From an uncultured Bacteroidales bacterium (GTDB lineage Bacteria > Bacteroidota > Bacteroidia > Bacteroidales > Paludibacteraceae), in NCBI GenBank assembly GCA_902784585.1, contig CACZVM010000009.1, forward strand, positions 1-64,000: a stretch of 64,000 bases of DNA, written 5' to 3'. The position numbers and the translations under genes were made by a program. Positions 801 to 62,924 of this stretch are shown here, one piece after another; the stretch's first letter is position 1, and every line of letters begins with the position of its first letter. The notes beneath the pieces are model-generated. The model did not search any database. It saw nothing but the letters and a program-made list of their open reading frames with translations, and was not told the DNA's origin.

Positions 801-1694
801 ATGAAGAATATAGCTTTTATCATCAATCCTATTTCGGGCAACAAAGAGACACAACGCGAGAAACGTAAGTTGCCTAAGTTGATCATGCAGACCCTCGATC
901 CGGAACAGTGGTTGCCCAACATCACCTTCACCGAGTATGCAGGGCACGCGACGGAACTGGCACATCAGTACGCCCGTATGGGGTTTGATGCCGTGGTCGC
1001 CGTAGGCGGTGACGGTACGGTGAACGAGGTGGCACGCGGCCTACGCGAGACTGAGACGGCACTGGGTATACTGCCTATGGGTAGCGGCAACGGCTTTGCT
1101 CGTCACCTCTGCATACCCATGCGCACGCAGAAAGCCATAGAGATGCTCAACCGCTCGGAGCCTATCCGCGTGGACTACGGACTGGCCAACGGAAAGATGT
1201 TCGTATGCACCTGCGGCACAGGATTTGACGCCGTAGTGGCAGACAACTTCGCTGCCGGCAACAAACGCGGATTCATGAGCTATATACAGAACACCATCGC
1301 CAAGGCCTTCACCTACCAGCCGCAGACCTACCACCTGATGGGCGACGGACTGGACGTGACGCACAAAGCGTTTCTGATCACCTTCGCCAACGCCAACCAG
1401 TGGGGCAACGACGCGAAGATAGCACCCAAAGCCAGCATACAGGACGGACAGATGGACATCATGCTCATGTCCAGTCATGCCATACTCGGTAGCGCCAGCC
1501 TCGCTCTGCGACTCTTCACCGGCACCATCGACGGTAGCTTCTTCATGGACACCATACGTGCCCGTGAGATCACCGTGGAGCGCGAAGAGGCAGCGCCCTT
1601 CCATATCGACGGCGACCCTGTGGAGATGGACAAAGATATCCATATCAAGATCGTGCCCGACGGACTAAGAGTGCTCGCGGAGAAGAGGTTTTGA
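801..1694 (+). CDS. Diacylglycerol kinase-family lipid kinase
   Basis: A 297-residue cytoplasmic kinase of the DAGK/YegS type, expected to phosphorylate a lipid such as diacylglycerol or a sphingoid base with [18 protein letters not shown] opens the nucleotide-binding fold, GGDGT is at about residues 69-73, and [10 protein letters not shown] at about 94-103 is the usual second glycine-rich motif. Length fits the family. The ATG at 801 is chosen over an upstream in-frame codon at 735 because 735 lies upstream of the -7 element. It is the first gene of a run ending near 8.7 kb, and a second paralogue lies at 62962-63885. The lipid substrate cannot be told; Bacteroidales make sphingolipids, so a sphingoid substrate is possible. 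Confidence 0.9.
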
Positions 1695-1735
1695 TTCACA
1701 ATTCACAATTCAAAATTCACAATTCACAATTAACA
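1694..1735. repeat. Heptad repeat array, six units, filling a stop-to-start gap
   Basis: Six contiguous 7-base units (ATTCACA x2, ATTCAAA, ATTCACA x2, ATTAACA) begin on the last base of the lipid kinase TGA stop (1692-1694) and end at the base before the dut ATG (1736). No other intergenic sequence exists here. Confidence 0.95.
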
Positions 1736-2170
1736 ATGATTTTGAAGATTATCAACAGGAGCAATAATCCGCTGCCGCGGTATGAGAGCGCACAGGCGGC
1801 AGGCATGGATATACGCTGCTCGCTGAACGAGGCAGTGACGCTGCAACCCATGGAGCGGCGACTGATACCCACAGGACTATATATCGAACTGCCCGCCGGC
1901 TACGAAGCGCAGATACGCCCGCGCAGCGGACTGGCACTCAAGCGCGGACTGACTGTACTCAACACCCCTGGTACTATCGATGCCGACTACCGAGGCGAAG
2001 TGGGTGTCATCCTGATCAACCTCAGCGGCGAACCGCAGACCATCGAACCCGGCGAACGTATATGCCAGATGGTCATCGCCCGACATGAGACACCCGAAGT
2101 GGTGGAAGTGACAGAACTGAGCGACACCGAACGCGGCGCCGGAGGATTTGGACACTCGGGTCGAAAATGA
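1736..2170 (+). CDS. dut: dUTP diphosphatase (dUTPase)
   Basis: This 144-residue trimeric dUTPase hydrolyses dUTP to dUMP and diphosphate, keeping uracil out of DNA and supplying dTMP synthesis. All five family motifs are visible: AGMDIRC near residue 22, the RSGLA phosphate-binding loop near 63, [10 protein letters not shown] near 79, the GERICQM segment, and the C-terminal glycine-rich arm [10 protein letters not shown]. Length matches bacterial enzymes. The ATG at 1736 directly abuts a heptad repeat array, so any ribosome-binding site would lie in repeat DNA. A stem-loop covers the stop codon. The order dut, TPR protein, DUF4292 lipoprotein, EnvC-like activator is, from memory, common in Bacteroidales. 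Confidence 0.95.
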
Positions 2171-2180
2171 GTTTTCGACC
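2159..2180 (+). other. Perfect stem-loop over the dut stop codon
   Basis: GGTCGAAAA (2159-2167) pairs with TTTTCGACC (2172-2180) around a 4-base loop that contains part of the TGA stop. No T-run follows, so it is more likely an RNA-stability or attenuation element than a classical terminator. Confidence 0.5.
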
Positions 2181-2228
2181 ATTGGAGATTGGTGATTGGA
2201 GATTCAAAATTTAAAATTAAGATTTGAG
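2180..2228. repeat. Heptad repeat array between dut and the TPR gene
   Basis: Seven units in one 7-base phase drift from GATTGGT-like (CATTGGA, GATTGGT, GATTGGA) to GATTCAA, AATTTAA, AATTAAG, ATTTGAG. The TTG start of the next gene (2224) lies inside the last unit. Confidence 0.85.
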
Positions 2229-3225
2229 AATTGTTCGTTACATAGTAGTCTGTATTCTGTGTTCTGTACTCTGTATTCCTACAGAGGCAAAGAAGCCGCA
2301 GCCGGTGGCAGTGCCGCAGGACACACTGAGCGTGGAGCAGCGGCAGCAGTTCTCCTACTACTGGTACGCTGCCCGTCAGGCCATCGAAGAGGAACGCTAT
2401 GCCGATGCACTGGTGCTGCTCACCTTCTGCGAACAACTCAACCCGCAGGACGGCACGACGCTCGACTATCTGGGTACGATGTACGATGCTCTCAACGAAC
2501 AGGAGACGGCTCTGCAACTCTACCGCCGTGCCAACCAGGCCGACCCGCGTGACCAGTGGTGGCACCTGACACGTATGCTCTTGCAGCGAGACAGTGAGGC
2601 GGATAAGGCTGAGGCACTGCGAGTGATGGAGCGAGCACTCACACTCAACCCGAAGAACGAGGACCTGCTCGAGCAATTGAAGCAGACCTATATGGAACGT
2701 CAGATGTGGAAAGAAGCGCTGCACACGCAAGACCAACTGGACGGCATACGCGGCTATGACGCATGGAGCGCCATCACCCGTTACCGCATCTACGTCATCT
2801 GGAACAAGCCCAAACAGGCACTGGCAGCGATAGACAAATATCTGGAACTCGACCCGGGTGACCTGCGTTTTCTGGTGTTCCGACTCGAACTGATGGAACG
2901 CTTCAACGCCAAGCCTGCCGAACGATTTGAGATGTACGAGAAGATACTGAGTTACGACCCCGGTAACCTGATGATACTCAACAACTACGCCTACCTGCTC
3001 GCCACCACCGGCGGCAACCTGCGCAAGGCGGAACAGATGAGCCAGCAGACCATCCGCGAAGAGGGCGACAACCCCGTCTATCTGGACACCTACGGATGGA
3101 TACTCCATCTGCAGAAACAAGACCAGTTGGCACTCTTCTACCTCCAGAAAGCACTGATGTACAGTACACCGGAGACACGCGGGGAGATAGAGAAGCACCT
3201 CAAAGAGGTGAGAGGTGAAAGATGA
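2224..3225 (+). CDS. Secreted tetratricopeptide-repeat protein
   Basis: A 333-residue protein with an N-terminal signal peptide (RIVRYIVVCILCSVLCIPTEA) followed by TPR-type helical pairs, for example YADALVLLTFCEQLNPQDGT, KAEALRVMERALTLNPKNED and QLALFYLQKALMYSTPETR, over most of residues 45-325. TPR proteins act as protein-binding scaffolds; here an outer-membrane or periplasmic assembly role is inferred from its position between dut and an envelope lipoprotein. The start is TTG at 2224, within repeat DNA; no in-frame ATG lies before the signal peptide. Its stop lies inside the next heptad array. Confidence 0.8.
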   Translation: MRIVRYIVVCILCSVLCIPTEAKKPQPVAVPQDTLSVEQRQQFSYYWYAARQAIEEERYADALVLLTFCEQLNPQDGTTLDYLGTMYDALNEQETALQLYRRANQADPRDQWWHLTRMLLQRDSEADKAEALRVMERALTLNPKNEDLLEQLKQTYMERQMWKEALHTQDQLDGIRGYDAWSAITRYRIYVIWNKPKQALAAIDKYLELDPGDLRFLVFRLELMERFNAKPAERFEMYEKILSYDPGNLMILNNYAYLLATTGGNLRKAEQMSQQTIREEGDNPVYLDTYGWILHLQKQDQLALFYLQKALMYSTPETRGEIEKHLKEVRGER

Positions 3226-3270
3226 AAGTTTAGAGTTTAGTGTTTAGTGTTTAGAGATGAGAGTTAAGAA
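3208..3270. repeat. Heptad repeat array spanning the TPR-gene stop and the next ATG
   Basis: Nine units in constant phase: GTGAGAG, GTGAAAG, ATGAAAG, TTTAGAG, TTTAGTG x2, TTTAGAG, ATGAGAG, TTAAGAA. The first three encode the end of the TPR protein and contain its TGA stop (3223-3225). The ATGAGAG unit supplies the start codon at 3257. Confidence 0.9.
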
Positions 3271-3814
3271 TTTATTCATAGTAGTCCTCTGTCTCGGGCT
3301 GATGGGATGTGCAGCGAAGAAGGGAGCTGTCAGCCATCAGCCGTCAGAAGTCAGTCAAGAGAAGGCTTGGCATACCTGCCTCATGCAAGGCGTACAGATA
3401 GGTGTCAGCACGGACGATGAGAAACTGAGTTCCGGCGCCACGATGCAAGTGGTGCGCGACTCCATGCTCATCATCAGCGTCATGCCGATGCTCAACATCG
3501 AAATGCTGCGTGTCGAGGCAACACCCGATGGCGTGGTAGTGATAGACAAACTGCACGGACGCTATGCCAAGGCCGACTACGCCACCATCAACCGCAAACT
3601 GGTGCCGACGATCAGCTGGCAGGTACTACAAGAGATGTGTTCGGCCGAACTGCCTACGGGCAGCGAGAGAGCACGCATGCGCTATACCTACGACGGACGC
3701 AAGACCATCGACCTGACGATAGTCTATCCCGAGCGACAGACTGACGTGCCCGTACGCATGAACGCACTCAGACTCGACAAGTACAAAGAGATGAACATCG
3801 TCAATCTACTTTGA
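3257..3814 (+). CDS. DUF4292-family lipoprotein
   Basis: A 185-residue lipoprotein: signal sequence NLFIVVLCLGLMGC with lipobox LMGC (Cys about residue 18), then a hydrophilic linker GAVSHQPSEVSQ encoded by heptad repeats (3329-3356), then a beta-rich domain. It resembles DUF4292, a family of LolB-like envelope lipoproteins in Bacteroidetes, but is shorter than the roughly 250 residues I expect. It lies between a TPR protein and an EnvC-like gene. An envelope role is inferred from the lipobox; the biochemical function is unknown. The ATG comes from a repeat unit. Confidence 0.75.
   Translation: MRVKNLFIVVLCLGLMGCAAKKGAVSHQPSEVSQEKAWHTCLMQGVQIGVSTDDEKLSSGATMQVVRDSMLIISVMPMLNIEMLRVEATPDGVVVIDKLHGRYAKADYATINRKLVPTISWQVLQEMCSAELPTGSERARMRYTYDGRKTIDLTIVYPERQTDVPVRMNALRLDKYKEMNIVNLL
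3329..3356. repeat. In-gene heptad array in the DUF4292 linker
   Basis: Four units, GTCAGCC, ATCAGCC, GTCAGAA, GTCAGTC, encode the linker right after the lipidated cysteine. The orientation is stop-free on the coding strand. Confidence 0.85.
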
Positions 3815-3839
3815 TAATTAAAAATTAAGAATTAAAAAT
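3812..3839. repeat. Heptad array between the DUF4292 gene and envC-like gene
   Basis: TGATAAT, TAAAAAT, TAAGAAT, TAAAAAT in phase. The first unit contains the TGA stop of the preceding gene (3812-3814). Confidence 0.85.
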
Positions 3840-3859
3840 TGGTTTTGAAGATCATACAT

Positions 3860-5044
3860 ATGAGCAACAAACTGCTGCCGAGGTTGGTCTGCGTAGCAGT
3901 CTGCATGCTAACCGCCCTAGCGGTGTTGGCAGCGGATAACGTGAAGGACCTGCAGAAGAAACAGAAGAAACTGCAGGCGGAGATAGAGCAGACCAACAAG
4001 ATGCTCAAGCAGACCAAGAAAGATGAGAGTGCGACGATCAATAAGTTGCAACTCATCGGCGAGAACATCAAGACACAGCGCAAGCTGATCACTACGCTCG
4101 ACAACGAGATATCTGCACTCAACTCCGAGATGGAACGGCTAAGCAACACACGTGACTCGCTGCAGCAGGTACTGGAGCGCCACAAGGCCGACTACGCCCG
4201 TATGATCAGGCAGACCCACTACACGCGTCTGCAGCAGTCGCCACTACTCTTCCTCTTCAGCAGCCAGGACTTCCAGCAACTGGTCCGCCGTGCGCGTTAC
4301 CTGCAGGAGGTGGCACGTTTCCGTCAGCAGCAGGTGCGCCGCATTGAGACCACCCAGGCGGAGATAGATACCCAGAACAACCTGCTTCAGGAGAACAAGA
4401 ACGACAAGCAGCAGAGCCTGAACAGCCGCAAGCGCGAGCAGGAGAACCTCAAGCGCGACGAACGCAAACAGCAGACGATGCTCTCCCAACTCAAGAGCAA
4501 AGAGAAAGACCTGAGCAAGAAACTGCAGCAACAGCAGAAACGAGCTGCTGACCTGAACAAGAAGATAGACGACATGATACGCAAGCAGGCGGCTGCCAAA
4601 TCCAACCTGACCAAAGAGCAACAACTCGTGGCCGGCGGATTTGAGGCCAACAAAGGACGTCTGCCCTGGCCTGTGGAGAAGGGTATCATCATCGGCCATT
4701 TCGGCAAACACCCGCACCCCGTCTATCCGCAAGTGATGATAGACAACAAGGGTATCTACCTGCAGACCACCACCGGCAGCAAAGCCCGCGCGGTGTACAA
4801 AGGCGAGGTGACCAGTTGCTTCATGGTAGGCAACACCTACGCCGTCATCATCCAGCACGGTAACTACCGCACCGTCTATTCCAACCTGAGCCGACTCAGC
4901 GTCAAGCAGGGCGACAAAGTGGAGACCAAACAGCTGATCGGTACGATCTATACCGACCCCGAACAAGACCAGAAGACGGAACTATACTTCCAGATATACA
5001 AAGATCGTAACATACTAAATCCTGAATTATGGATAGCAAAATAA
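3860..5044 (+). CDS. EnvC-like murein hydrolase activator (coiled coil plus degenerate LytM)
   Basis: A 394-residue exported protein: signal peptide to about residue 25 (ending LAVLAA), a coiled coil of roughly 220 residues rich in Gln, Lys and Glu, and a C-terminal M23/LytM-like domain (GRLPWPVEKGIIIGHFGKH onwards). In active M23 peptidases the last motif is HxH; here the corresponding strand reads ELYFQI, so the zinc ligand His is absent. That is the EnvC pattern of a non-catalytic domain that activates amidases during cell separation. An activator role is therefore inferred. The ATG at 3860 is preferred to a TTG at 3839 because the signal peptide starts there. Its 3' end overlaps the next gene by 16 bases. 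Confidence 0.85.
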   Translation: MSNKLLPRLVCVAVCMLTALAVLAADNVKDLQKKQKKLQAEIEQTNKMLKQTKKDESATINKLQLIGENIKTQRKLITTLDNEISALNSEMERLSNTRDSLQQVLERHKADYARMIRQTHYTRLQQSPLLFLFSSQDFQQLVRRARYLQEVARFRQQQVRRIETTQAEIDTQNNLLQENKNDKQQSLNSRKREQENLKRDERKQQTMLSQLKSKEKDLSKKLQQQQKRAADLNKKIDDMIRKQAAAKSNLTKEQQLVAGGFEANKGRLPWPVEKGIIIGHFGKHPHPVYPQVMIDNKGIYLQTTTGSKARAVYKGEVTSCFMVGNTYAVIIQHGNYRTVYSNLSRLSVKQGDKVETKQLIGTIYTDPEQDQKTELYFQIYKDRNILNPELWIAK

Positions 5045-5574
5045 AGTTGAAAGTGGAAAGTTTAAAGTGGAAAGGGCTTGCGCTTTGCGCAATGTTAATG
5101 CTCCTTATTCCATCATGCAAACAGAACAACTGGCTCGATTGGAAGACACAGAATGAGCTATGGCTGGCGCAGAACAAAGCCGACCATTCGGACATACGCG
5201 AGACAGCCAGCGGACTGCAATACCGCATCAAGGCCGACCCCACGCCGCAGGATGTTCGTCCGAACACCACCAGCAGCGTCGTCATATGCGACTATACCGT
5301 ACACCTGATCAACGGCTATAAGGTGGCTGGCGGACACGACACGCTGTACTTGCCCAGTTGTATACCCGGCTTTGCGGAGGGTTGTCACCTCATCCACAAC
5401 AACGGTGACATCAACCTCTATATCCCCTATTACCTCGGTTACGACAACTCGCAATACGAGTCAGGCAACAGCTACAACGCCTCAGGTCGCGGTACGGAGG
5501 GAACAAGCAGTTACATCCCGCCCTACTCCACACTCATCTACGACATCCATCTATGCGCCGTCATCGGATATTGA
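5029..5574 (+). CDS. FKBP-type peptidyl-prolyl isomerase-like lipoprotein
   Basis: A 181-residue protein with lipobox LIPSC after a leader rich in Lys, then an FKBP-like domain: SGLQYRI, a strand VVICDYTVHLINGYKV, IPGFAEGCHLIHNNGDINLYIP, YLGYDNSQYE and the closing IPPYSTLIYDIHL. These match the FKBP order (core strand, flap, PGF/W-E-G motif, Y-G, final I-P-P-N-S-x-L strand), although the usual active-site aromatic and DS positions are altered. Cell location would be the periplasmic face of a membrane. The N-terminal KLKVESLKWKG before the hydrophobic core is encoded by a heptad array. It overlaps the envC-like gene at its start and the next gene at its end, so translation is probably coupled. 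Confidence 0.75.
   Translation: MDSKIKLKVESLKWKGLALCAMLMLLIPSCKQNNWLDWKTQNELWLAQNKADHSDIRETASGLQYRIKADPTPQDVRPNTTSSVVICDYTVHLINGYKVAGGHDTLYLPSCIPGFAEGCHLIHNNGDINLYIPYYLGYDNSQYESGNSYNASGRGTEGTSSYIPPYSTLIYDIHLCAVIGY
5043..5077. repeat. Heptad array in the start of the FKBP-like gene
   Basis: AAAGTTG, AAAGTGG, AAAGTTT, AAAGTGG, AAAGGGC in phase. It straddles the envC-like stop and encodes the basic n-region of the FKBP-like signal sequence. Confidence 0.85.
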
Positions 5575-6062
5575 CATATATCGCCCTGGTGCTGACAACG
5601 GCACTGCTGCTCTCGCTGACGGCGTGCGACGGCACGACCTTCGGTAGCAGTGTACCCCGGCTGAGAGTGAACATACGCCTGGATCTCCGTCAGAGCAGTT
5701 TCGTCACCTTCACGCCGGAGAACACCTATGCCTATGTGACGGCTACCCGAAAGGGCTTCTACCTGAACGGAGAGTACGCCGCTCCTGCCCTGGACACCGA
5801 TTATTTCGGTTACGGCGGCGTGGTTATCTACGTGAACATGCTGGGCGGATACGATGCCTACGACATGGCGTGTCCCTACTGCGCCTCACGCGGCTATGCC
5901 CATACCTGCAAGGTCAATTCCATGTCCGCCGTATGCCCCGTATGCGGCGAGGAATACCAGCTATGGTCAGGCACGGGCATCCCCACCAAGGGCATCACCC
6001 GCGAACCGCTGCTGCGACTGCCGCTTACCGTTACCGACAACTACATCATCGTAAGACAATAA
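5553..6062 (+). CDS. Rieske-fold-like lipoprotein with four cysteines
   Basis: A 169-residue lipoprotein with lipobox LTAC near residue 25. The C-terminal half follows the layout of a Rieske domain: YGGVVIYVNMLGGYDAYDMACPYC, then AVCPVCGEEYQLWSGTGIP, then GITREPLLRLPLTVTDNYI. In a true Rieske protein the ligands are CxH and CxxH; here both pairs read CxxC (ACPYCA and VCPVCG). A 2Fe-2S Rieske centre is thus unlikely, and a rubredoxin-like or zinc site with four Cys is inferred. An extra Cys lies between them (AHTCKV). It overlaps the FKBP-like gene by 22 bases and sits two bases before rimM. Its role is unknown. Confidence 0.7.
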   Translation: MRRHRILTYIALVLTTALLLSLTACDGTTFGSSVPRLRVNIRLDLRQSSFVTFTPENTYAYVTATRKGFYLNGEYAAPALDTDYFGYGGVVIYVNMLGGYDAYDMACPYCASRGYAHTCKVNSMSAVCPVCGEEYQLWSGTGIPTKGITREPLLRLPLTVTDNYIIVRQ

Positions 6063-6064
6063 GC

Positions 6065-6469: not shown

Positions 6470-7023
6470 GAAAGAAGACGACATCTGAGTTGGACCGCAT
6501 GAATACGGACCAGTACCGCGAGGCAGACAAGCTGCCCCTGGTGGTGGTACTCGACAACGTACGCAGTCAGCACAACGTAGGTGCTGTCTTCCGCACCGCC
6601 GACGCGATGCGCATTTCGCGCGTAGTGCTATGCGGCATATGCTGCTGCCCGCCTAACGCGGAGATACACAAGACCGCCCTGGGTGCAGAAGAGAGTGTAG
6701 ACTGGCAGTACTACAAGGATACCACCGAGGCCGTCAGAGACCTGCAGACGGCCGGATATACCGTCTATGCCGTGGAACAGGCACACAACTCCGTCACGCT
6801 GGAAGAAATCAGCCATCAGCTATCAGCAGTCAGCATTCAGCCGAAAATAGCAGTTATTTTCGGCCATGAGGTCTTCGGCGTGCAACAAGAGGTGGTGGAC
6901 TGCTGCACCCAGTGTATAGAGATTCCTCAATACGGCACCAAGCACTCGATGAACGTCAGCGTGACGGCAGGCATCGTGATGTACCGCCTCGCGGAAGCGA
7001 TGCGTACCAATCCTAAATCTTAA
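6466..7023 (+). CDS. SpoU/TrmH-family RNA 2'-O-methyltransferase
   Basis: A 185-residue knotted (SPOUT) methyltransferase expected to transfer a methyl group from S-adenosylmethionine to a ribose 2'-OH of tRNA or rRNA. Motif 1 is NVGAVFRTADA (about residues 37-47), motif 2 is IAVIFGHEVFGVQQEVVD, and motif 3 is IPQYGTKHSMNVSVTAGIVMY, which forms the knot. Lacks an N-terminal substrate-binding domain, so the target RNA is unknown. Residues about 114-125 (ISHQLSAVSIQ) are encoded by a five-unit heptad array just before motif 2, where homologues should have a short loop. Starts in an ATGA overlap with rimM; its stop lies in another array. Confidence 0.88.
   Translation: MRKKTTSELDRMNTDQYREADKLPLVVVLDNVRSQHNVGAVFRTADAMRISRVVLCGICCCPPNAEIHKTALGAEESVDWQYYKDTTEAVRDLQTAGYTVYAVEQAHNSVTLEEISHQLSAVSIQPKIAVIFGHEVFGVQQEVVDCCTQCIEIPQYGTKHSMNVSVTAGIVMYRLAEAMRTNPKS
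6808..6842. repeat. In-gene heptad array in the TrmH-family gene
   Basis: Five units in phase: ATCAGCC, ATCAGCT, ATCAGCA, GTCAGCA, TTCAGCC. They encode a loop before methyltransferase motif 2. Confidence 0.92.
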
Positions 7024-7049
7024 ATCATAAATCTCAAATCATAAATAAC
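7015..7049. repeat. Heptad array joining the TrmH-family stop to the U32 start
   Basis: AAATCTT, AAATCAT, AAATCTC, AAATCAT, AAATAAC. The array covers the last codons and TAA of the methyltransferase gene and ends one base before the TTG start of the U32 gene. Confidence 0.92.
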
Positions 7050-8543
7050 TTGCTCTCCCTCCTCAGTCCAGCCAAGAACAAAGAAGTGGCCCATGCGGCT
7101 ATCCAAGCCGGCGCGGACGCCATCTATATCGGTGCGCCGGCCTTCGGTGCGCGCGAGAAAGCAGGCAACAGTCTGGAGGATCTGGAGGAGGTGGTGCGCG
7201 AAGCGCATCTATACGGGGTGCAGGTGCTGGTCACCCTCAACACCCTGCTCCGTGACGACGAGTACCCCGAGGCGGTCCGCATGGCGCATGACCTGCACCG
7301 CATCGGCGTAGATGCACTGATCGTTCAGGACCTCCATCTGCTGGACTTCCCCCTGCCACCTATCCGTCTGCATGCCTCGACGCAATGCGACAACCGTACG
7401 CCCGAACAGGTGGCACGGCTGCGTGACCTGGGCTTCAAGCGCGTCGTGCTGGCGCGGGAACTGAGCATCGACGAGATACGTGCCATCCATGAGGCTGTGC
7501 CCGACATTGAGCTGGAGGCCTTCGTCCACGGTGCGCTCTGCGTGAGTTATTCAGGCCGATGCTACATGAGCGAAGTGCTGGCCGGCCGCAGCGCCAACAG
7601 AGGTGCCTGTGCGCAGTTCTGCCGTATGGCCTACGACCTGCTGGACAGCGAAGGACGAGAGGTGATAGACGACGAAGGGCAACCCATCCACCAGCGCCAC
7701 CTGCTCTCGCTGCAAGACCTCGACCGCAGTGCATATCTGCAGGAATTGATAGACGCCGGCGTGACCACCTTTAAGATAGAAGGAAGGCTGAAAGATGCCG
7801 ACTACGTGACCAATATCGTGGCGTACTATCGGGAGAAACTCTCAGCCATCAGCCCTCAGCATTCAGTCATCACGCGCAGTTTTGAACCTAATCCCGAGAA
7901 GACGTTCCACCGCGGGGCGACAGATTATTTCCTGCACGGACGGACACGGCCGATGGCCAACTGGACGACACCCAAGTCCACCGGTGAACATATCGGTGAG
8001 GTAGTGGAGGTACACGGCAATACGCTGCGCGTACGACTGCTACCGGGCGTGACGCTCCACAACGGCGACGGACTGACCATCGGCACCGAGGGCTTCAACG
8101 TGAACGGCGTAGAGGGGAATATCGTGAAGATCAACAAGCAGCCTACCTCCGACAATGTTCTACGGACGGCCACCGGCAGTCCGATCGGGCAAAGCCCTTC
8201 ACCCGTAAAGGGGAGAGAGTTGTATAGAAATCTAGATATAGCGTTTCTCAAGAGTCTGCATAGCGAGCGTAAGATACCTGTGGATATCGAACTGAAGGAG
8301 ACGGCAGACGGGTTTGAACTGAGTTTCCGCTCCGCGTTCAGCACCCAGCATGCCGCATTCCGTTATCCGCACGAGCCGGCTAAGAATGCAGAGAAAGCCA
8401 TGGAGACCATCCGCACACAACTCGCCAAACTGGGTGACACACCGTATGTCGCACGCGAAGTACGGATAGAGAGCGCACCCTATTTTATACCCATCAGCAT
8501 CATCAACGAATGGAGAAGACAAATAATAAATCGTCAATCGTAA
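7050..8543 (+). CDS. Peptidase U32-family protein (RlhA/TrhP-like), C terminus split off
   Basis: A 497-residue TIM-barrel protein of the U32 family; relatives in E. coli (RlhA, TrhP) carry out prephenate-dependent RNA hydroxylation, so an RNA-modification role is more likely than proteolysis. The signature EAFVHGALCVSYSGRC is at about residues 152-167, with further conserved Cys in GACAQFC and the motif FKIEGRLKDADYV. The start is TTG at 7050, giving LLSPAKNKEVAHAAIQAGAD. Residues about 264-273 (LSAISPQHSV) come from a heptad array. The frame stops at 8543 inside another array, and the missing C-terminal Cys-rich tail is encoded by the overlapping frame at 8510-8728. Confidence 0.88.
   Translation: MLSLLSPAKNKEVAHAAIQAGADAIYIGAPAFGAREKAGNSLEDLEEVVREAHLYGVQVLVTLNTLLRDDEYPEAVRMAHDLHRIGVDALIVQDLHLLDFPLPPIRLHASTQCDNRTPEQVARLRDLGFKRVVLARELSIDEIRAIHEAVPDIELEAFVHGALCVSYSGRCYMSEVLAGRSANRGACAQFCRMAYDLLDSEGREVIDDEGQPIHQRHLLSLQDLDRSAYLQELIDAGVTTFKIEGRLKDADYVTNIVAYYREKLSAISPQHSVITRSFEPNPEKTFHRGATDYFLHGRTRPMANWTTPKSTGEHIGEVVEVHGNTLRVRLLPGVTLHNGDGLTIGTEGFNVNGVEGNIVKINKQPTSDNVLRTATGSPIGQSPSPVKGRELYRNLDIAFLKSLHSERKIPVDIELKETADGFELSFRSAFSTQHAAFRYPHEPAKNAEKAMETIRTQLAKLGDTPYVAREVRIESAPYFIPISIINEWRRQIINRQS
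7841..7868. repeat. In-gene heptad array in the U32 gene
   Basis: CTCAGCC, ATCAGCC, CTCAGCA, TTCAGTC in phase, encoding SAISPQHSV; stop-free orientation. Confidence 0.88.
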
Positions 8544-8728
8544 ATCATCCAAACGGACATCCGTTGATGATCTGCCGCTACTGCCTGCTGTTCGAACTCG
8601 GGCATTGCAGAAAAACGGCTCCTTATCCCAAAGACAAGGAACCGCGATATCTGCGTCTGCGCACCGGTCAGATGGTGCGTCTCAGTTTCGATTGTGCCCG
8701 CTGTGAGATGCGGATAGACGAAGTCTAA
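8510..8728 (+). CDS. Detached C-terminal tail of the U32 protein
   Basis: A 72-residue frame beginning ATG at 8510, 34 bases inside the U32 gene in another frame. PLMICRYCLLFELGHC and LSFDCARCEMRI carry CxxC pairs that, from memory, form the C-terminal metal-binding tail of Bacteroidetes U32 proteins, where they are contiguous with the barrel. The first 15 residues (KTNNKSSIVNHP) are encoded by heptad repeats. The simplest reading is that repeat growth at 8519-8546 shifted the frame and split one gene in two; the tail may still be made as a separate peptide through translational coupling. Alternatively it is a dead remnant. It ends four bases into the convergent TonB receptor gene. Confidence 0.7.
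   Translation: MEKTNNKSSIVNHPNGHPLMICRYCLLFELGHCRKTAPYPKDKEPRYLRLRTGQMVRLSFDCARCEMRIDEV
8519..8546. repeat. Heptad array at the U32 split point
   Basis: ACAAATA, ATAAATC, GTCAATC, GTAAATC in phase. It contains the TAA stop (8541-8543) that ends the barrel part of the U32 gene. Confidence 0.85.
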
Positions 8729-48256: not shown

Positions 48257-48290
48257 GATTGGTAATTGATAATTGGTAATTGGTAATTTT
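48257..48290. repeat. Heptad array filling the porQ-cmk gap
   Basis: GATTGGT, AATTGAT, AATTGGT x2, AATTTT, from three bases after the porQ stop to the base before the cmk ATG. Confidence 0.92.
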
Positions 48291-48975: not shown

Positions 48976-49907
48976 ACATTTCGATTGACGAACATAGCGG
49001 TTTTTGTTTCGGAGTGACGCGAGCCATCGAGACAGCAGAGAGCGAACTGAAGAACGGTTCGCTTTGTTGCTTGGGCGACATCGTGCACAACGGACGAGAG
49101 GTGGCGCGCCTGGAGCAAATGGGTCTGCAGACGATTGACTACGATGACCTGCGTACGCTACCCTCGGATGCGCGAGTGCTGCTACGTGCGCACGGAGAAC
49201 CGCCCAGCACCTATTGGATAGCCCGTCAACGCGGCCTGAGCATCATCGACGCTACCTGTCCGGTGGTGAAGAAACTGCAAGAACGCATCCACGCGTGCTA
49301 CGAGCAGCATAAGAACGACGAGGCGCTACCGCCACAGATCGTCATCTACGGTCAACCCGGCCATGCCGAAGTGATCGGACTACAGGGACAGACCAACAAC
49401 ACAGCCATCGTCATCGAGCATGCCGACCAACTCGACCGCATTGATTTCACCAGGCCTATATACCTCTTCTCGCAAACCACCAAATCGGTCGAGGGTTTTC
49501 ACGCACTGGAGGAGGCCATCCGATCACAAATCACCAATCACCGATCACCCATTACGCTGGAAGCGCACGATACTATCTGCCGCAATGTAGCCAACCGCGT
49601 GAAGGAGCTGCAGGCTTTTGCGCAGGCGAACGATCTGGTGTTCTTTGTAGGTGGAAGCAAATCGAGCAACGCGAAGGTGCTCTTCCAGAAATGCGCGGAG
49701 GTCAATCCCAACACCTTGTTTGCCTCATCGCCGGACGAGGCCGAAGAGAAGTTCTCGGCATTCCGCATTCAGCATTCAGGAACAACAAATCCCGACTTTC
49801 GTGTCGGGATCTGCGGAGCGACGAGTACGCCGCTATGGTTAATGGAGCAGGTACGCGATCGTATCATGCTTCTTGCTTCTCATATTCCTGCAGGAACAGG
49901 AAATTAG
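48972..49907 (+). CDS. ispH: 4-hydroxy-3-methylbut-2-enyl diphosphate reductase
   Basis: A 311-residue iron-sulfur enzyme for the last step of the MEP isoprenoid pathway (HMBPP to IPP and DMAPP). The three cluster cysteines are visible in SGFCFGVTRA (about residue 12), IDATCPVV (about 96) and VGICGATSTP (about 278); LGDIVHNGREV, RAHGEPP and GQPGHAEVIG are further landmarks. Starts at TTG 48972, formed by repeat DNA. Two heptad arrays lie inside: one encodes ITNHRSPIT at about 184-193 and another IQHS at about 262-269, both apparently in loops. The 3' end overlaps the convergent membrane-protein gene by 44 bases. Confidence 0.93.
   Translation: MNISIDEHSGFCFGVTRAIETAESELKNGSLCCLGDIVHNGREVARLEQMGLQTIDYDDLRTLPSDARVLLRAHGEPPSTYWIARQRGLSIIDATCPVVKKLQERIHACYEQHKNDEALPPQIVIYGQPGHAEVIGLQGQTNNTAIVIEHADQLDRIDFTRPIYLFSQTTKSVEGFHALEEAIRSQITNHRSPITLEAHDTICRNVANRVKELQAFAQANDLVFFVGGSKSSNAKVLFQKCAEVNPNTLFASSPDEAEEKFSAFRIQHSGTTNPDFRVGICGATSTPLWLMEQVRDRIMLLASHIPAGTGN
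49523..49550. repeat. In-gene heptad array in ispH
   Basis: ATCACAA, ATCACCA, ATCACCG, ATCACCC in phase, encoding SQITNHRSPI. Confidence 0.92.
49759..49779. repeat. Second in-gene heptad run in ispH
   Basis: CATTCCG, CATTCAG, CATTCAG in phase, encoding AFRIQHSG, close to the third cluster cysteine. Confidence 0.8.
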
Positions 49908-54893: not shown

Positions 54894-54915
54894 CAGCGTT
54901 TTTTGGCGATCACAT

Positions 54916-57303: not shown

Positions 57304-57311
57304 AGCGACTG

Positions 57312-57343: not shown

Positions 57344-57360
57344 CAAAAATGAAGGAAATC

Positions 57361-57392: not shown

Positions 57393-57448
57393 CAGCCGCA
57401 AATTGATTACAAATCCATAAAACACATCAACAAAACCATTTTTCTATT

Positions 57449-58842: not shown

Positions 58843-58845
58843 CCA

Positions 58846-59883
58846 ATGAAAGTCCTATTCCTCACTCCCTGGTATCCGTCCGCTGAGGACGCTATGTCCG
58901 GCCTCTTCGTGCAGAAGCACGTGGAGGCTGTGCGGGCTCAGGGTGTGGAGGTACGTGTCATCCATGCGCAAACATGGCGCGACACGCTGCAGCAGTGGCG
59001 TACGCTCCGGCGCGAGGGCTGGATGCCCGATCTGGTGCAACTCAACGTCATTCAGAAGCAGGGACTCCTGGCACTTTGGCTGAAGAAGCGTTATCATATC
59101 CCGTACGTGATCATCGAGCACTGGAGCGGCTATCTGCCGGAGAATGCCACGGTGAAAGCACACGGACTGCGTCTGAGGTTCATGCAGCGCGTCTGCAGCG
59201 AGGCGGAAGTGGTCATGCCCGTCAGCCATCCCCTGCAACAGTGCATGCAGGCGCTGGGCTTCCAAGCCAAGAGATGGCAGCAGATCCATAACGTGGTGGA
59301 TGATTTCTTCTTCAAGAATCCGAAATCTGAAATCATAAATCATAAATCCAAAACCCTCCTGCATGTCAGCTGTTTCGACGAGCGAGCGAAGAATGTGAAG
59401 GGGCTGCTGCGGGCGGCTAAGATGCTCTCGCTCAAGCGTCAGGACTGGCAACTGGTACTCGTCGGTACCGGCATCGACTACGCCGACGTACGCTCCTATG
59501 CGGAGCAGCTGCAGATGCCCGAAGGACTACTCTGCTGGACGGGCGAACTGACTCCGCGCGAGGTGGCGGAACAGATGCGCCGCGCCGATGCACTCGTGCT
59601 CAGCAGCCGCTATGAGACCTACGGCGTCGTGCTGGCCGAAGCCTCAGCCGCCGGACTGCCTATCCTCTCCACTCCCGTCGGCATTGCCGAAGAGGTGGCC
59701 GACCTGATCGTACCGCAAGAGGTGGCACAACACAAGCCCGGCCGCTTTGCGGACTTCATCGAGACGATCTTATGGTCACCAATCACCAATCAGCAATCAC
59801 CAATCACCAATCAGTTTACTGCCGACGCCATCGGCTGTCAACTGCTCTCCGTCTATGATAGCTGTCTGCGTCACGACATATAA
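58846..59883 (+). CDS. Family 4 glycosyltransferase
   Basis: A 345-residue GT-B enzyme. MKVLFLTPWYPSAEDAMSG, FVQKHVEAVRAQGVEVRVI, the donor-domain segment LLHVSCFDERAKNVKGLLRA, LVGTGIDY, and the E-x7-E region SSRYETYGVVLAEASAAGLPIL are family landmarks. It transfers a sugar to a surface glycan; the sugar is unknown. Two heptad arrays lie in it, one encoding SEIINHKSK (about 159-168) between the two domains, and a six-unit one encoding SPITNQQSPITNQ (about 310-323) near the C terminus. Overlaps the next gene by 29 bases. Confidence 0.9.
   Translation: MKVLFLTPWYPSAEDAMSGLFVQKHVEAVRAQGVEVRVIHAQTWRDTLQQWRTLRREGWMPDLVQLNVIQKQGLLALWLKKRYHIPYVIIEHWSGYLPENATVKAHGLRLRFMQRVCSEAEVVMPVSHPLQQCMQALGFQAKRWQQIHNVVDDFFFKNPKSEIINHKSKTLLHVSCFDERAKNVKGLLRAAKMLSLKRQDWQLVLVGTGIDYADVRSYAEQLQMPEGLLCWTGELTPREVAEQMRRADALVLSSRYETYGVVLAEASAAGLPILSTPVGIAEEVADLIVPQEVAQHKPGRFADFIETILWSPITNQQSPITNQFTADAIGCQLLSVYDSCLRHDI
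59323..59350. repeat. In-gene heptad array between the two GT4 domains
   Basis: AAATCTG, AAATCAT x2, AAATCCA in phase. This unit family contains a stop codon in its reading cycle, and the array is just short enough to avoid it. Confidence 0.9.
59775..59816. repeat. In-gene heptad array near the GT4 C terminus
   Basis: GTCACCA, ATCACCA, ATCAGCA, ATCACCA x2, ATCAGTT: six units, giving a 7-residue periodic peptide SPITNQQ/SPITNQF. Confidence 0.95.
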
Positions 59884-60775: not shown

Positions 60776-61488
60776 TCTATCTTACCTACATCCATCATGC
60801 GGTAGTCGGCCGGCACATAGGCCATGAGGGATGATTGGTCATTGGTGATTGGTGATTGGTGATTTTGTGCGCAGAGATGCACGTAGAAATCGATCAGGGA
60901 GAATTTCTCTTCCTCCATCTCATCCAATCGCTCCAGCACCTCTTCGCTCAGCAGCTGCATGCCGCTGAAGGCCAGTCTTCGGCCATCCCGGCCTTTCAGT
61001 TCACCCGTGGCGATATTCGTCCATCCGCAGAGGTGATTGCGCTCGTCGAAACAGAGGTAACGCTGCGTCTGCCGTTCGCTGACGACGAGTTGGCTGACGC
61101 CTGTCTGCGCATAGGCATGAATGAGTGCCTGAAGATTGATATTACTCAGGATATCCACATTGCAGGCGAGTATAGGCTCGCCCGTCTCCCGTAACCCGTA
61201 ACCCATAACCGCTTTTCTCAGTCCTCCTCCCGTGTCGAGCAGCCGGTCGCGTTCGTCAGAGACGTTGATGCGGCATCCCCATCCGTCGTGGCGGCGGATG
61301 GTCTCGATGATCATATCGGGGAAGTGATGCACATTGACGATGATGTCGGATATACCAGCGTCACGCAGCCGCTCCACCTGCCACTGCAGCAGCGTCTTGC
61401 CTGCCAGCGGCAGCAGAGCCTTGGGCATCGTATCGGTCAGCGGGCGGAGACGTGTACCCAGGCCCGCACAGAAAATCATCGCTTTCAC
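60733..61488 (-). CDS. MurU-like sugar-1-phosphate nucleotidyltransferase
   Basis: A 251-residue nucleotidyltransferase: MKAMIFCAGLGTRLRPLTDTMPKALLPLAGKTLL (in parts) shows the GxGTRLxPxT signature; ILACNVDILSNINL supplies the metal-binding Asp and IDFYVHLC the later motif. Sequence and neighbours point to MurU, which converts MurNAc-1-phosphate to UDP-MurNAc in cell-wall recycling; a NDP-mannose or glucose enzyme is the alternative. The start is GTG at 61488, whose complement is the first bases of a heptad array. Residues about 209-218 (QNHQSPITND) are also repeat-encoded. Confidence 0.82.
   Translation of the reverse strand: MKAMIFCAGLGTRLRPLTDTMPKALLPLAGKTLLQWQVERLRDAGISDIIVNVHHFPDMIIETIRRHDGWGCRINVSDERDRLLDTGGGLRKAVMGYGLRETGEPILACNVDILSNINLQALIHAYAQTGVSQLVVSERQTQRYLCFDERNHLCGWTNIATGELKGRDGRRLAFSGMQLLSEEVLERLDEMEEEKFSLIDFYVHLCAQNHQSPITNDQSSLMAYVPADYRMMDVGKIDQLSEAERFAASLV
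60833..60860. repeat. In-gene heptad array in the MurU-like gene
   Basis: Plus-strand GATTGGT, CATTGGT, GATTGGT x2; the coding minus strand reads the stop-free ATCACCA orientation. Confidence 0.93.
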
Positions 61489-61534
61489 AATTCAAAATTC
61501 ACAATTCAAAATTCACAATTACAAATTACCAATT
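61486..61534. repeat. Heptad array at the MurU-like start codon
   Basis: Plus-strand CACAATT, CAAAATT, CACAATT, CAAAATT, CACAATT, ACAAATT, ACCAATT: seven units. The GTG start is the complement of the first CAC. A short palindrome (TCCCCGTT-A-AACGGGGA, 61546-61562) lies between this array and the next. Confidence 0.95.
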
Positions 61535-61580
61535 ACCTGACGGTGTCCCCGTTAAACGGGGAAACCCTAGACGGAAGGGG

Positions 61581-61629
61581 CACCAATCACCAATTACCAA
61601 TCACCAATCCCCAATCCCCAATCACCAAT
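61581..61629. repeat. Heptad array at the end of the RapZ-domain gene
   Basis: CACCAAT x2, TACCAAT, CACCAAT, CCCCAAT x2, CACCAAT: seven units, spanning the stop side of the RapZ-domain gene (stop at 61622). Confidence 0.95.
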
Positions 61630-62020
61630 CCCTTTCTATCCCGCGTTCGCGGTGAATAAGATGAATCTGCACGTCGTATTTCTCCCTCAGGTGATGCGCG
61701 AGCTGTTCGGCGCAATAGACGGAGCGGTGCTGTCCGCCGGTACAACCGAAGGCCACCTGCAGATGGCTGAACCCACGCTCTATGAATCGCTCCACATGAT
61801 GATCCACGAGCGGATAGACCGAGTGGAGGAACGTGATAATCTCGCCGTCTTGCTCGAGGAAATCGATGACGGGTTGGTCGAGTCCGGTCAACTGCATGTA
61901 CTGCGGGTATTTGCCGGGGTTGTGCGTGCTACGGCAGTCGAAGACATAACCGCCTCCGTTGCCGCTCTCGTCGGCCGGGATGCCGCGTTTATACGAGAAG
62001 GAGTAGATCGTTACTAACAT
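61622..62020 (-). CDS. RapZ C-terminal domain protein
   Basis: A 132-residue protein equal to the C-terminal domain of RapZ, the part that binds glucosamine-6-phosphate and small RNA in E. coli. TIYSFSYKRGIPADESGNGG, YVFDCRSTHNPGKY, LTGLDQPVIDFLEQ and VAFGCTGGQHRSVYCAEQLAHHL are all strongly conserved. In Bacteroides, as I remember it, this domain is fused to the C terminus of the AmgK-like kinase. Here the kinase frame ends at 61989 and this frame starts at 62020 in another frame, overlapping by 32 bases, so the fusion is split. It may be a true separate gene through coupled translation, or the result of a frameshift. Confidence 0.85.
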   Translation of the reverse strand: MLVTIYSFSYKRGIPADESGNGGGYVFDCRSTHNPGKYPQYMQLTGLDQPVIDFLEQDGEIITFLHSVYPLVDHHVERFIERGFSHLQVAFGCTGGQHRSVYCAEQLAHHLREKYDVQIHLIHRERGIERDW

Positions 62021-62924
62021 GATAGATATAGGGATAATGGTCTTTCAGTTCGGAATGGGTGGCAAATAGTTCGTTCAGGTTGCGCAGCGCCATAGGTATC
62101 GACTCGAGGAAATGCTGCTTGCGCTCGAAATAGCCGCGGTAGCCGTACGCACCGAGTACCTGCAAGGTGCGCAGCAGCACGAAATGCGGGAGAGCCGAGA
62201 GCCACTCTGTTCTATTGGTGATTGGTGATTGGTGATTGGTGATTTCCACTTGCTCCAACTCTTCCAAATAGGCTTCCACCATCTGCATTCGGAACTCGGG
62301 CGAGAAATTGGCCTTGGCCTGCCAGAGGAAAGAAGCGACGTCGTACTGGGTAGGGCCGCGTCTACCGCCCTGAAAATCGATGAAGTACGGTTGTTCGTCG
62401 CGTATCATCACGTTGCGGCTCTGGAAGTCGCGGTAGAGGAAAGTGGAGAGTGGAGAGTGGAAAGTGGAAAGAAGATTCTCCACTATCTTATCGAAGTCAT
62501 CCTCCAGCAGGGGTTCGCTGAACTCCAGCCGGGTGCCCTTCAGGAAGCAGTACTTGAAGTAGTTGAGGTCCCAACGGACAGCCCGTTCGTCCATCGCGGG
62601 AACGGGGAAGCATTTCGACCAGTCGAAGTCGCGTGCTCCGGTCACCTGTATATGCGCGAGCGCACGGATAGCGCGTTCCACCAGCATGGGTTCGAGCCGA
62701 TCGAAGAGGAGCGTGTCGCCCAGGTCCTCCTGGGTATAACTCATCTCGTCTTCACTCACATGGTACACCTCGGGCACAGGTAGCCCCAGCGCATGAAAAT
62801 GGCGCGCCATATAGATGAACGCACGGTTCTCGTCGCGGTTGGTACCCACCACGCGAATGACCGTCTTGCCCTCCGCGTCCGTCTCCCGCGTGTATATCCT
62901 ATTAGATCCTTGCTGCTTTATCAT
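61989..62924 (-). CDS. AmgK-like aminoglycoside phosphotransferase-fold sugar kinase
   Basis: A 311-residue APH-fold kinase. GSNRIYTRETDAEGKTVIRVV, NRAFIYMARHFHALGLPVPEV, YTQEDLGDTLLF, the catalytic loop FLYRDFQSRNVMI and the metal motif YFIDFQGGRRGPTQYDVASFLW are present. AmgK phosphorylates MurNAc or GlcNAc at C1; with a MurU-like gene downstream, peptidoglycan sugar salvage is the best inference. The N terminus is about 20 residues shorter than relatives I recall. Two heptad arrays are inside: LSTFHSPLSTF right before the catalytic loop, and ITNHQSPITN at about 226-237. An upstream in-frame stop prevents an earlier start. Confidence 0.83.
   Translation of the reverse strand: MIKQQGSNRIYTRETDAEGKTVIRVVGTNRDENRAFIYMARHFHALGLPVPEVYHVSEDEMSYTQEDLGDTLLFDRLEPMLVERAIRALAHIQVTGARDFDWSKCFPVPAMDERAVRWDLNYFKYCFLKGTRLEFSEPLLEDDFDKIVENLLSTFHSPLSTFLYRDFQSRNVMIRDEQPYFIDFQGGRRGPTQYDVASFLWQAKANFSPEFRMQMVEAYLEELEQVEITNHQSPITNRTEWLSALPHFVLLRTLQVLGAYGYRGYFERKQHFLESIPMALRNLNELFATHSELKDHYPYIYHVSNDLLLLV
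62213..62247. repeat. In-gene heptad array in the AmgK-like gene
   Basis: Plus-strand TATTGGT, GATTGGT x3, GATTTCC; on the coding strand stop-free, encoding EITNHQSPITNR. Confidence 0.93.
62441..62468. repeat. In-gene heptad array before the kinase catalytic loop
   Basis: Plus-strand AAGTGGA, GAGTGGA x2, AAGTGGA; coding strand encodes LSTFHSPLSTF, seven residues before the catalytic Asp. Confidence 0.9.

What the first reader, a model, noticed from the sequence alone, without database searches (positions are those of the whole stretch)
1694..62468. More than 30 arrays of degenerate 7-base repeats scattered through genes and junctions
The sequence shows arrays of 3-9 imperfect heptamers at about 30 loci: junctions (1694, 2180, 3208, 3812, 7015, 48257, 48955, 61486, 61581) and inside genes (3329, 5043, 6808, 7841, 8519, 10007, 10270, 35774, 37651, 37910, 47434, 49523, 49759, 55896, 59323, 59775, 60833, 62213, 62441). 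Units fall into families: ATTCACA, GATTGGT/ATCACCA, ATCAGCC, AAATCAT, TTTAGTG, AAAGTGG. Within an array the phase is strict but the bases vary. Heptameric STRR sequences are established in heterocystous cyanobacteria; I know of none described as a genome-wide family in Bacteroidales. This could be an undescribed repeat-generating process or element.
Basis: partly seen in the sequence, partly recalled or inferred. Interest (0 to 1): 0.88.

Follow-up and report, generated by a model that had tools for sequence, protein, structure and literature searches.

The report
Heptamer tracts at recurrent gene sites
Rumen bacteria of this group carry many short stretches of seven-letter DNA repeats, often inside conserved genes, and related species gain, lose and often differ in these repeats at the same spots, so they seem to be inserted as well as simply stuttered longer.

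Summary
The period-7 excess is real: 28 Tandem Repeats Finder (TRF) rows in the window against a mean of 1.25 in shuffles, and 107 arrays in 464 kb of the window's genome. The excess belongs to the window's genus, a ruminant-gut Paludibacteraceae/Bacteroidales lineage, and is weak in other genera of the order.

The arrays are not fixed. At orthologous sites another genome also has an array in 360 of 1287 comparisons, against 47 of 7939 at control sites. Units match fully in 45 of 360 and poorly (at most 4 of 7 bases) in 184, though with close flanks (>=90%) 18 of 28 match. Tract length peaks at 31-33 bp whatever the unit. Arrays abut perfect palindromes at about 17 sites, 0.7 expected. Units are shared within genomes beyond chance.

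I read them as short patches inserted by template switching at stalled ends, then altered by slippage (0.35); the mechanism is inferred. Heptamer repeats are known elsewhere, including a few Bacteroidetes. The in-gene recurrent sites, length peak and hairpin abutment look new.

The parts
1694..1737 (+). ATTCACA array, 6.3 units, at a gene junction
   Evidence: TRF score 74
2159..2204 (-). 9-bp-stem palindrome (2159-2180) directly abutting an ATTGGAG/ATTGGTG array (2181-2204)
2245..2278 (+). GTATTCT array
   Evidence: TRF score 47
3204..3274 (+). AGAGGTG then AGTTTAG/AGTGTTT array at a gene junction
   Evidence: TRF rows 3204-3218 and 3227-3274
3816..3840 (+). AATTAAA array at a gene junction
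   Evidence: TRF score 43
5043..5074 (+). AAAGTTG/AAAGTGG array
   Evidence: TRF scores 43 and 57
6807..6864 (+). AATCAGC array (6807-6841) in a SpoU methylase gene, meeting a coding palindrome (6840-6864) whose arms differ between species but stay matched
7009..7046 (+). AATCATA array between the SpoU and U32 peptidase genes
   Evidence: TRF scores 48 and 62
7842..7872 (+). TCAGCCA array inside the U32 peptidase gene, at a site with different fillers in relatives
   Evidence: TRF score 34
8138..8219 (+). Copy of a dispersed element (consensus peptide KPTPDNVLRTATGSPIEQSSSPVKGRE) in frame inside the U32 peptidase gene; a separate repeat family
8527..8546 (+). TAAATCG array, end of the U32 peptidase gene (weak)
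   Evidence: TRF score 33
35770..35799 (+). AGCCGTC array in an acyltransferase gene
   Evidence: TRF score 39; Pfam
37910..37968 (+). ATCACCG array (37910-37936, weak) followed 3 bp on by a 12-bp-stem palindrome (37940-37968), in an alanine-racemase/HAD fusion gene
47463..47483 (+). GGAGGAA array (weak)
   Evidence: TRF score 35
48258..48288 (+). ATTGGTA array just before the cytidylate kinase gene
   Evidence: TRF score 55; Pfam
49523..49549 (+). ATCACCA array inside ispH (LytB), recurrent insertion site 1
49758..49810 (+). GCATTCA array (49758-49779) inside ispH, recurrent insertion site 2, with an 8-bp-stem palindrome at 49789-49810
59317..59353 (+). AATCATA/AATCCGA array in the interdomain linker of a group 1 glycosyltransferase (weak)
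   Evidence: TRF score 32
59776..59813 (+). TCACCAA array near the C-terminus of the same glycosyltransferase
   Evidence: TRF score 69
60832..60864 (-). ATTGGTG array inside a nucleotidyltransferase gene (CACCAAT in the gene's sense)
   Evidence: TRF score 59; Pfam
61188..61210 (+). CCCGTAA array
   Evidence: TRF score 39
61484..61537 (+). TTCACAA/TTCAAAA array
   Evidence: TRF scores 54-75
61538..61580 (+). Palindromic core A lying between the flanking arrays; 12 copies in the own genome
61581..61630 (+). CACCAAT array on the other side of core A
   Evidence: TRF score 79
62214..62244 (-). ATTGGTG array, 31 bp, perfect, inside a phosphotransferase gene (CACCAAT in the gene's sense)
   Evidence: TRF score 62; Pfam
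62438..62471 (-). GGAAAGT array in the same gene
   Evidence: TRF score 54

Best explanation
Shown: heptamer tracts, most often about 32 bp long, recur at the same loops, gene junctions and hairpin bases across species of this genus, are gained and lost there, and at moderate divergence often have different units. Inferred: many arise as short patches. A replication or repair end that stalls (sometimes at a hairpin base) copies a short stretch from elsewhere, usually another heptamer tract of the same genome, and then rejoins. Selection keeps in-frame, stop-free copies inside genes. The same template switching on the nascent strand makes and maintains the adjacent perfect palindromes. Slippage and point mutation inside a tract then change it. 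No function is needed; the tracts would be tolerated scars in a genus where this process is unusually active.
For: Recurrence: an array at the orthologous site in 360 of 1287 comparisons against 47 of 7939 controls; net shortening by 10 bp or more without an array in 527 of 1287 against 74 of 7939. Unit differences: consensus units agree at 4 of 7 bases or fewer in 184 of the 360. Individual replacements or clean gains between close species: L083/L134 in a glycosyltransferase linker, L090/L098, L114/L130, L126/L127, and a 24-bp ATTGGTG gain in L092 against L090 (13 pairs examined). Length peak at 31-33 bp in own and other genomes, coding and non-coding; two geometric models and a uniform model did not give it. 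Abutment to palindromes of stem >=8 within 2 bp: 25 of 379 arrays against about 1.0 expected, 19 site clusters (three of them one ThiF-like site, so about 17) against 0.7, maximum 3 of 300. SpoU gene: seven genomes with array plus palindrome have arms of different sequence that stay perfectly matched. Units shared inside genomes: 57 of 637 pairs against 11.1 expected, maximum 28 of 1000, own genome left out. Net size differences are multiples of 7 in 9 of 81 array records. Template switching that creates and maintains hairpins is a published mechanism (PMC8794818, abstract and opening of the introduction seen).
Against: With flanks >=90% identical, the unit is the same in 18 of 28 array pairs, and orthologous arrays are more alike than random pairs (identical in 12.5% against 0.7%), so descent with drift is substantial. 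Some close-pair changes are whole 7-bp steps (L090/L092 42 bp, L114/L130 7 bp, L126/L127 21 bp). Whole-tract copying is not seen: the order of unit variants matches another array no better than shuffled orders (20.8 against 20.7 bp), though only 464 kb of the genome was compared. Only 25 of 379 arrays abut a strong palindrome, and some of these look like terminators, which the random-position null does not allow for. The length peak has no explanation in this model. Core A among arrays at many loci looks more like a mobile composite. No within-species polymorphism was available.
Confidence: 0.35

Rival explanations
1. Ordinary strand-slippage repeats, like the STRR of cyanobacteria: local seeds expand in 7-bp steps, favoured because the polymerase grips about 7 bp, and drift apart in each species.
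For: Heptamers are reported over-represented in many bacteria, with the polymerase-grip idea (PMC4692102, passages). Close-pair changes in whole units and a concerted unit change (L097/L102 AATTGAA to AATTGAT in several copies) are seen. Units are mostly kept between the closest flanks (18 of 28) and orthologous units are more alike than random ones.
Against: Length peak at 31-33 bp rather than a monotone decline. Units agreeing at 4 of 7 bases or fewer at the same site in 184 of 360 comparisons. Units shared between loci of one genome beyond chance. Net differences multiple of 7 in only 9 of 81 records.
Confidence: 0.27
2. Array-bearing mobile elements: small non-autonomous palindromic elements (core A, core B and the U32-type element) carry or seed heptamer tracts and spread them, as Rickettsia palindromic elements spread through genes.
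For: Core A: 12 copies in the own genome, 11 of them exact over the 19-bp query, 0 in the reversed control; 11 of 12 follow an ATTGGT array and 10 of 12 have at least one more ATTGGT unit on the other side (my count). Dispersed U32-type element in 12 of 61 genomes, all in this genus. A preferred tract length.
Against: Most arrays have no recurring neighbour (by eye). Core A occurs in several congeners without evident heptamers. Heptamer tracts share no ends that I saw. No Y1_Tnp match in the own genome or in G034, which is 97% complete.
Confidence: 0.2
3. A dedicated writer adds heptamers to DNA ends from a short template, in the manner of telomerase, with a genome-specific template; the tracts are end-repair scars.
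For: Strict 7-nt phase, preferred ~32-nt length, units shared across a genome, and strand asymmetry at hairpin bases (15 clusters on the 3' side of the A/C-rich strand against 4), an orientation that is uncertain for units of mixed composition.
Against: No RVT_1 match in the own genome or in G034 and G035 (97% complete) although they hold many arrays. Several unit families coexist in one genome. No candidate template was sought.
Confidence: 0.07
4. The arrays are selected regulatory or structural sites (protein binding, translation control), not by-products.
For: Many lie at ORF edges: 43 of 107 by a crude ORF call. A translational role was proposed for TAACTGA sets (PMC4679880, abstract passage).
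Against: Unit sequence is poorly kept at orthologous sites outside the closest pairs, many lie in loops of enzymes, and there is no orientation bias at edges (23 against 20).
Confidence: 0.07

Closest known systems
STRR / heptameric repeats of heterocystous cyanobacteria (Calothrix, Nostoc)
   Same: 7-bp units, several families, genome-wide, imperfect copies.
   Different: Reported mainly between genes; here many lie in-frame inside conserved enzymes, at recurrent sites, with a peak length of 31-33 bp. Cyanobacterial details come from PMC4692102 and PMC4679880 passages and recall.
GGGAATC heptamer repeats of Xanthomonas (PMC4692102, passages)
   Same: 186 and 183 sets in two genomes, most of about four units, with extensive length and sequence variation between close species at the same intergenic sites.
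   Different: One G-rich family with G-quadruplex potential; here many A/C- or A/T-rich families and in-gene sites.
TAACTGA direct repeats of marine Beggiatoaceae (PMC4679880, passages)
   Same: Genome-wide heptamer sets, also present in five Bacteroidetes including Paludibacter.
   Different: One exact heptamer, mainly close to start codons; in two Cyanothece strains the differences are mostly 7-nt steps. Here units vary and many net differences are not multiples of 7.
Rickettsia palindromic elements (recalled; papers seen only in a search listing)
   Same: Small repeats inserted in-frame in conserved genes, like the U32-type element and the recurrent loops here.
   Different: Heptamer tracts have no conserved sequence or ends; RPE families do.
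Quasipalindrome / template-switch mutations
   Same: Perfect palindromes with co-changing arms beside some arrays.
   Different: Known events copy short local stretches (recalled and PMC8794818 abstract); here the inserted tract is a tandem heptamer with units common in that genome.

Membership tests
STRR-type heptameric tandem repeats | Tandem 7-bp units in excess over chance, genome-wide | tested here: met
   28 against 1.25 in the window; 107 arrays in 464 kb of the own genome
STRR-type heptameric tandem repeats | Variation between relatives in whole 7-bp steps | tested here: inconclusive
   Net differences multiple of 7 in 9 of 81 array records, but several of the closest pairs do differ by whole units. 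The feature comes from PMC4679880 for two Cyanothece strains and may not define all STRR.
STRR-type heptameric tandem repeats | Mainly intergenic | tested here: not met
   45 of 107 arrays inside ORFs, 43 at ORF edges, 19 intergenic, by a crude ORF caller
TAACTGA repeats | Unit TAACTGA | tested here: not met
   Not among the 39 unit classes of the own-genome sample
RPE-like intragenic palindromic elements | One conserved element sequence at many loci | tested here: not met
   Not for heptamer tracts; met by core A and by the U32-type element
RPE-like intragenic palindromic elements | In-frame insertion in conserved genes | tested here: met
   Glycosyltransferase, ispH, SpoU and U32 alignments
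REP elements mobilised by a RAYT (Y1) transposase | A Y1_Tnp gene in the genome | tested here: not met
   No PF01797 match in G000 (79% complete) or G034 (97% complete); some other congeners have matches, mostly weak
Telomerase-like or retro-element writing | Reverse transcriptase in the genome | tested here: not met
   No PF00078 match in G000, G034 or G035; other RT families not tested
Template-switch mutation | Perfect palindromes with co-changing arms at event sites | tested here: met
   SpoU site in seven array-bearing genomes; abutment test, for a minority of arrays only
Template-switch mutation | Observed single-step events in a lineage | not testable with these tools
   One genome per species; no strain series

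The most novel reading that the evidence does not exclude
These genomes run a discrete DNA-writing process that inserts heptamer tracts of about 32 bp (4-5 units), with a genome-specific unit repertoire, at hairpin bases and permissive loops, including inside conserved and probably essential genes, and from time to time overwrites them with new units. It would be a mutational process distinct from slippage and from known transposition.
Probability: 0.25. Interest if true: 0.85.

Novelty: new variant of a known kind. Interest (0 to 1): 0.58.

Why it matters
It gives a bacterial genus in which conserved enzymes repeatedly gain, lose and sometimes swap short repeat inserts at fixed positions, so the origin of heptamer repeats becomes testable by comparing close species. 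The length peak, the unit differences at shared sites and the hairpin abutment are constraints that a slippage model must meet. It also warns that loops in these proteins, and alignments built on them, carry repeat-derived sequence.

Tried and rejected
Chance: rejected by shuffles. Conserved coding sequence common to all relatives: rejected. Assembly artefact of one metagenome: unlikely, because arrays are found in many separately assembled genomes with different units. Local spread of units between neighbouring arrays: not significant in the one test run (similar units in 0.29 of 75 pairs under 1.5 kb against 0.21 expected, inside the null range); identical units were about 0.17 in those pairs against 0.05-0.09 in same-contig pairs farther apart, which I did not test. 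Link to replication strand through GC skew: none evident. Copying of whole variant-ordered arrays: none seen. Loss of mismatch repair: a mutS1 match in 60 of 61 genomes, 57 over the cut-off, own genome included. SbcD: above cut-off in only 5 of 37 genomes of the genus and not in the own genome, but also missing from array-poor members, so inconclusive. RAYT and RT. The reversed-pattern control is no control, because AAAGTTG read backwards is the same repeat; only between-genome comparison was used there. In one search the reversed pattern also matched 15 times at up to 2 mismatches (my sum of its rows), so single core-A matches in congeners were judged by their flanks. Perfect-run lengths peak at 17-20 bp because neighbouring identical units are cut by variant units; they were not used as tract lengths.

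re-measured it (45 identical, 51 at 6 of 7, 264 at 5 or fewer; 18 of 28 identical with flanks >=90%). This weakens 'nearly always replaced', and I lowered the best explanation from 0.40 to 0.35 and the novel case from 0.30 to 0.25, and raised slippage from 0.20 to 0.27. The U32-type element is in 12 of 61 genomes, not 13.

Literature searches made: (five of ten). None listed a paper whose title or abstract start describes heptamer tracts inside genes of Bacteroidales; most subscription papers are not held. Papers opened: PMC4692102 and PMC4679880 (passages only), PMC8794818 (abstract and opening of the introduction). Others were seen in search listings only.
Full report
The observation. TRF (score >=30) finds 28 period-7 rows in the 64-kb window; forty block-wise dinucleotide shuffles give 1.25 on average and 6 at most, and at score >=40 the count is 16 against none. 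The window lies in a 1.63-Mb, 79%-complete genome in 21 contigs. In the window plus 400 kb of other stretches (464 kb) there are 107 arrays of period 7 at score >=40, in 39 unit classes led by AATCACC (26) and AATTACC (11). A crude ORF call puts 45 inside ORFs, 43 at ORF edges and 19 between genes; 37 of the 45 inside are read in the A/C-rich sense. The opposite strand of the main family, (ATTGGTG)n, contains TGA in every frame, so coding arrays are limited to stop-free readings (seen directly in the sequence).

Who has it. The nearest named records are 'Paludibacteraceae bacterium' and uncultured Bacteroidales MAGs, where the source is named mostly from ruminant gut. (ATTGGTG)3 with up to 3 mismatches is found in 28 of 36 congeners (up to 116 matches) and in 6 of 24 other genera of the order (1-3 matches each); the reversed pattern usually matches few times, at most 11 in a congener and 19 in another genus, G045. 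In generic counts, 77 arrays occur in 388 kb of the genus (20 stretches; five stretches, from four genomes, have none) against 3 in 236 kb of other genera, some of which are short or without G and C. The genus stretches were mostly taken at loci already in view, so their density may be high. Different genomes favour different units: AAAGTTG-type matches are highest in G015, G018 and G030, while the own genome is low for them and highest for ATTGGTG. Outside the own genome, same-unit pairs within a genome number 57 of 637 against 11.1 expected (maximum 28 of 1000 shuffles). Similar units are not significantly commoner between neighbours than between distant arrays.

Not fixed. In 70 glycosyltransferase sequences (the window's and 69 homologues) two loops, one of them the interdomain linker, carry a heptamer array in some species, another filler in others, and little or nothing in the rest. 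IspH has two such loops, SpoU one, and the U32 peptidase two or more. Of 13 close pairs aligned, three have no array in either member and one aligned badly; among the rest there are kept arrays, clean gains or losses (24 bp in L092 against L090; about 50 bp in L090 against L098) and sites with different content (L083/L134, L090/L098, L114/L130, L126/L127). A systematic count with one genome per comparison gave, for 288 arrays, 152 with an orthologous site and 1287 comparisons: an array in 360, shorter by 10 bp or more without an array in 527, other content in 400. At 1200 random control sites (737 with an ortholog, 7939 comparisons) the figures were 47, 74 and 7818. The sites are therefore recurrent targets. 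Selection for tolerant loops can explain much of the recurrence.

Unit differences. In one search I first counted 327 of the 360 as having another unit, which overstates it. Comparing phase consensus units directly (213 distinct pairs behind the 360 comparisons), 45 are identical, 51 agree at 6 of 7 bases, 80 at 5, and 184 at 4 or fewer. Random pairs of arrays from different genomes give 0.7% identical and 83% at 4 or fewer, so orthologous arrays keep some likeness. With flanks >=90% identical, 18 of 28 are identical. Units thus persist among the closest species and become unlike at greater distance, by drift, by replacement or both; individual replacements are seen.

Tract length. Arrays detected at TRF score >=24 are near chance numbers up to 18 bp and peak at 31-33 bp: 29 of 112 coding and 14 of 90 other arrays in the own genome; 45 of 310 and 39 of 193 in the other loci, where 19-24 bp has 65 and 25-30 bp has 87 in bins twice as wide. 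Shuffles there were of single bases in 500-bp blocks. The peak appears with quite different units. In simulation, two geometric length distributions and a uniform one gave no such peak at 3, 8 and 13% mutation, and a length centred on 32 bp did. Net size differences to shorter orthologs, in 81 array records that include some repeated loci, are multiples of 3 in 59, as expected in genes, and multiples of 7 in 9.

Hairpins. Perfect palindromes (stem >=8, loop 3-9) lie within 2 bp of an array end for 25 of 379 arrays, about 1.0 expected. These form 19 site clusters, of which three are one ThiF-like site (named by eye) that my clustering did not merge, so about 17; random placement of one array per cluster gave 0.7 on average and at most 3 in 300 trials. 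Some of them look like terminators, and the null did not hold gene ends constant. Most (15 clusters against 4) are on the 3' side of the A/C-rich strand; this orientation is uncertain for units such as CTTTCAA. At the SpoU site, 27 of 30 loci could be read: seven have an array plus a palindrome of stem >=10, one has the palindrome without an array, six have an array without it, and thirteen have neither (my count). The arms of the seven differ in sequence but remain complementary, as template switching would produce (PMC8794818, abstract). Because the palindrome codes for a conserved motif, selection on the RNA or on codons is an alternative.

Other repeat families are entangled with the arrays. 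Core A, a 43-bp palindromic sequence at 61538-61580, has 12 copies in the own genome; 11 follow an ATTGGT array and 10 have at least one further ATTGGT unit on the other side, often only one or two (my count). It also occurs, mostly once per genome and mostly without evident heptamers, in several congeners; G003's copy has two related units beside it. A separate element of about 85 bp, present once in the window's U32 gene (8138-8219), recurs in congeners: all 20 stretches fetched around such hits contain it, several in frame inside unrelated genes, others at gene ends or after a stop. Its core matches in 12 of 61 genomes, all in this genus, with no match for the reversed pattern.

Mechanism. 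I favour short-patch template switching at stalled ends, with hairpins among the stall sites and a genome-wide pool of heptamer tracts as templates, followed by local slippage and drift. Shown: recurrence, gain and loss, unit differences at moderate divergence, length peak, abutment for a minority, shared units. Inferred: the switching, the pool as source, and the direction of synthesis. Against it: units mostly kept in the closest pairs, some whole-unit steps, variant order not shared between arrays, an unexplained length peak, and no strong palindrome at most arrays. Slippage alone is the strongest rival. A mobile composite is plausible for core A but not for most arrays. A telomerase-like writer lacks a candidate RT.

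Comparison with the literature. Heptamer repeats are a known kind. PMC4692102 (passages) describes 186 and 183 GGGAATC sets in two Xanthomonas genomes, similar repeats in Nostoc, and the idea that polymerase contact favours 7-bp slippage. PMC4679880 (passages) describes 169 TAACTGA sets in a Beggiatoaceae genome and some in five Bacteroidetes, including Paludibacter; in two Cyanothece strains differences were mostly 7-nt steps. What differs here is the in-gene recurrent sites, the 31-33 bp peak and the hairpin abutment. Five literature searches did not list a description of this in Bacteroidales; that is a limited library. Verdict: real, a new variant of a known kind, with mechanism open.

Noticed in passing
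window 8138-8219; L230-L249: Dispersed element of about 85 bp (peptide KPTPDNVLRTATGSPIEQSSSPVKGRE), in frame in the U32 peptidase and, in congeners, in genes that look like an ABC ATPase, lysS, dnaE and ribD (names by eye, not by a family search); other copies lie at gene ends or after a stop. Resembles Rickettsia palindromic elements; seems worth its own study.
   Followed up: partly
window 61538-61580; L158-L169: Palindromic core A beside or between ATTGGT arrays, 12 copies in the own genome (11 exact over the 19-bp query); single copies, mostly without heptamers, in several congeners.
   Followed up: partly
L155:17456-17530 and 19643-19771, L152:5841-5986, L138:1223-1293, L114/L130 near 5000: A second palindromic core (TTAGCCC..GGGCACGATTATTTGAC) embedded in AATTCAC/AATTGTG arrays, doubled in places and present in several genomes.
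   Followed up: no
L025 and L028/L207 ispH; L049 and L053 SpoU: Another filler family at the same sites, built on a GGTCTTACAG motif and read as RSYSxSGLTGEAGPT in ispH.
   Followed up: no
L139:2878-2920, L147:611-655, L150:6844-6890: Period-11 arrays (ACCTACTAATA/C) at three loci of the own genome; periods 8 and 11 are also commoner in the genus stretches than in the other genera.
   Followed up: no
window 11176-20757, minus strand: A single ORF of 3193 aa in a stretch with no period-7 rows; not examined.
   Followed up: no
genus-wide: SbcD above the family cut-off in only 5 of 37 genomes of the genus and not in the own genome; possible link to tolerated palindromes, inconclusive.
   Followed up: partly
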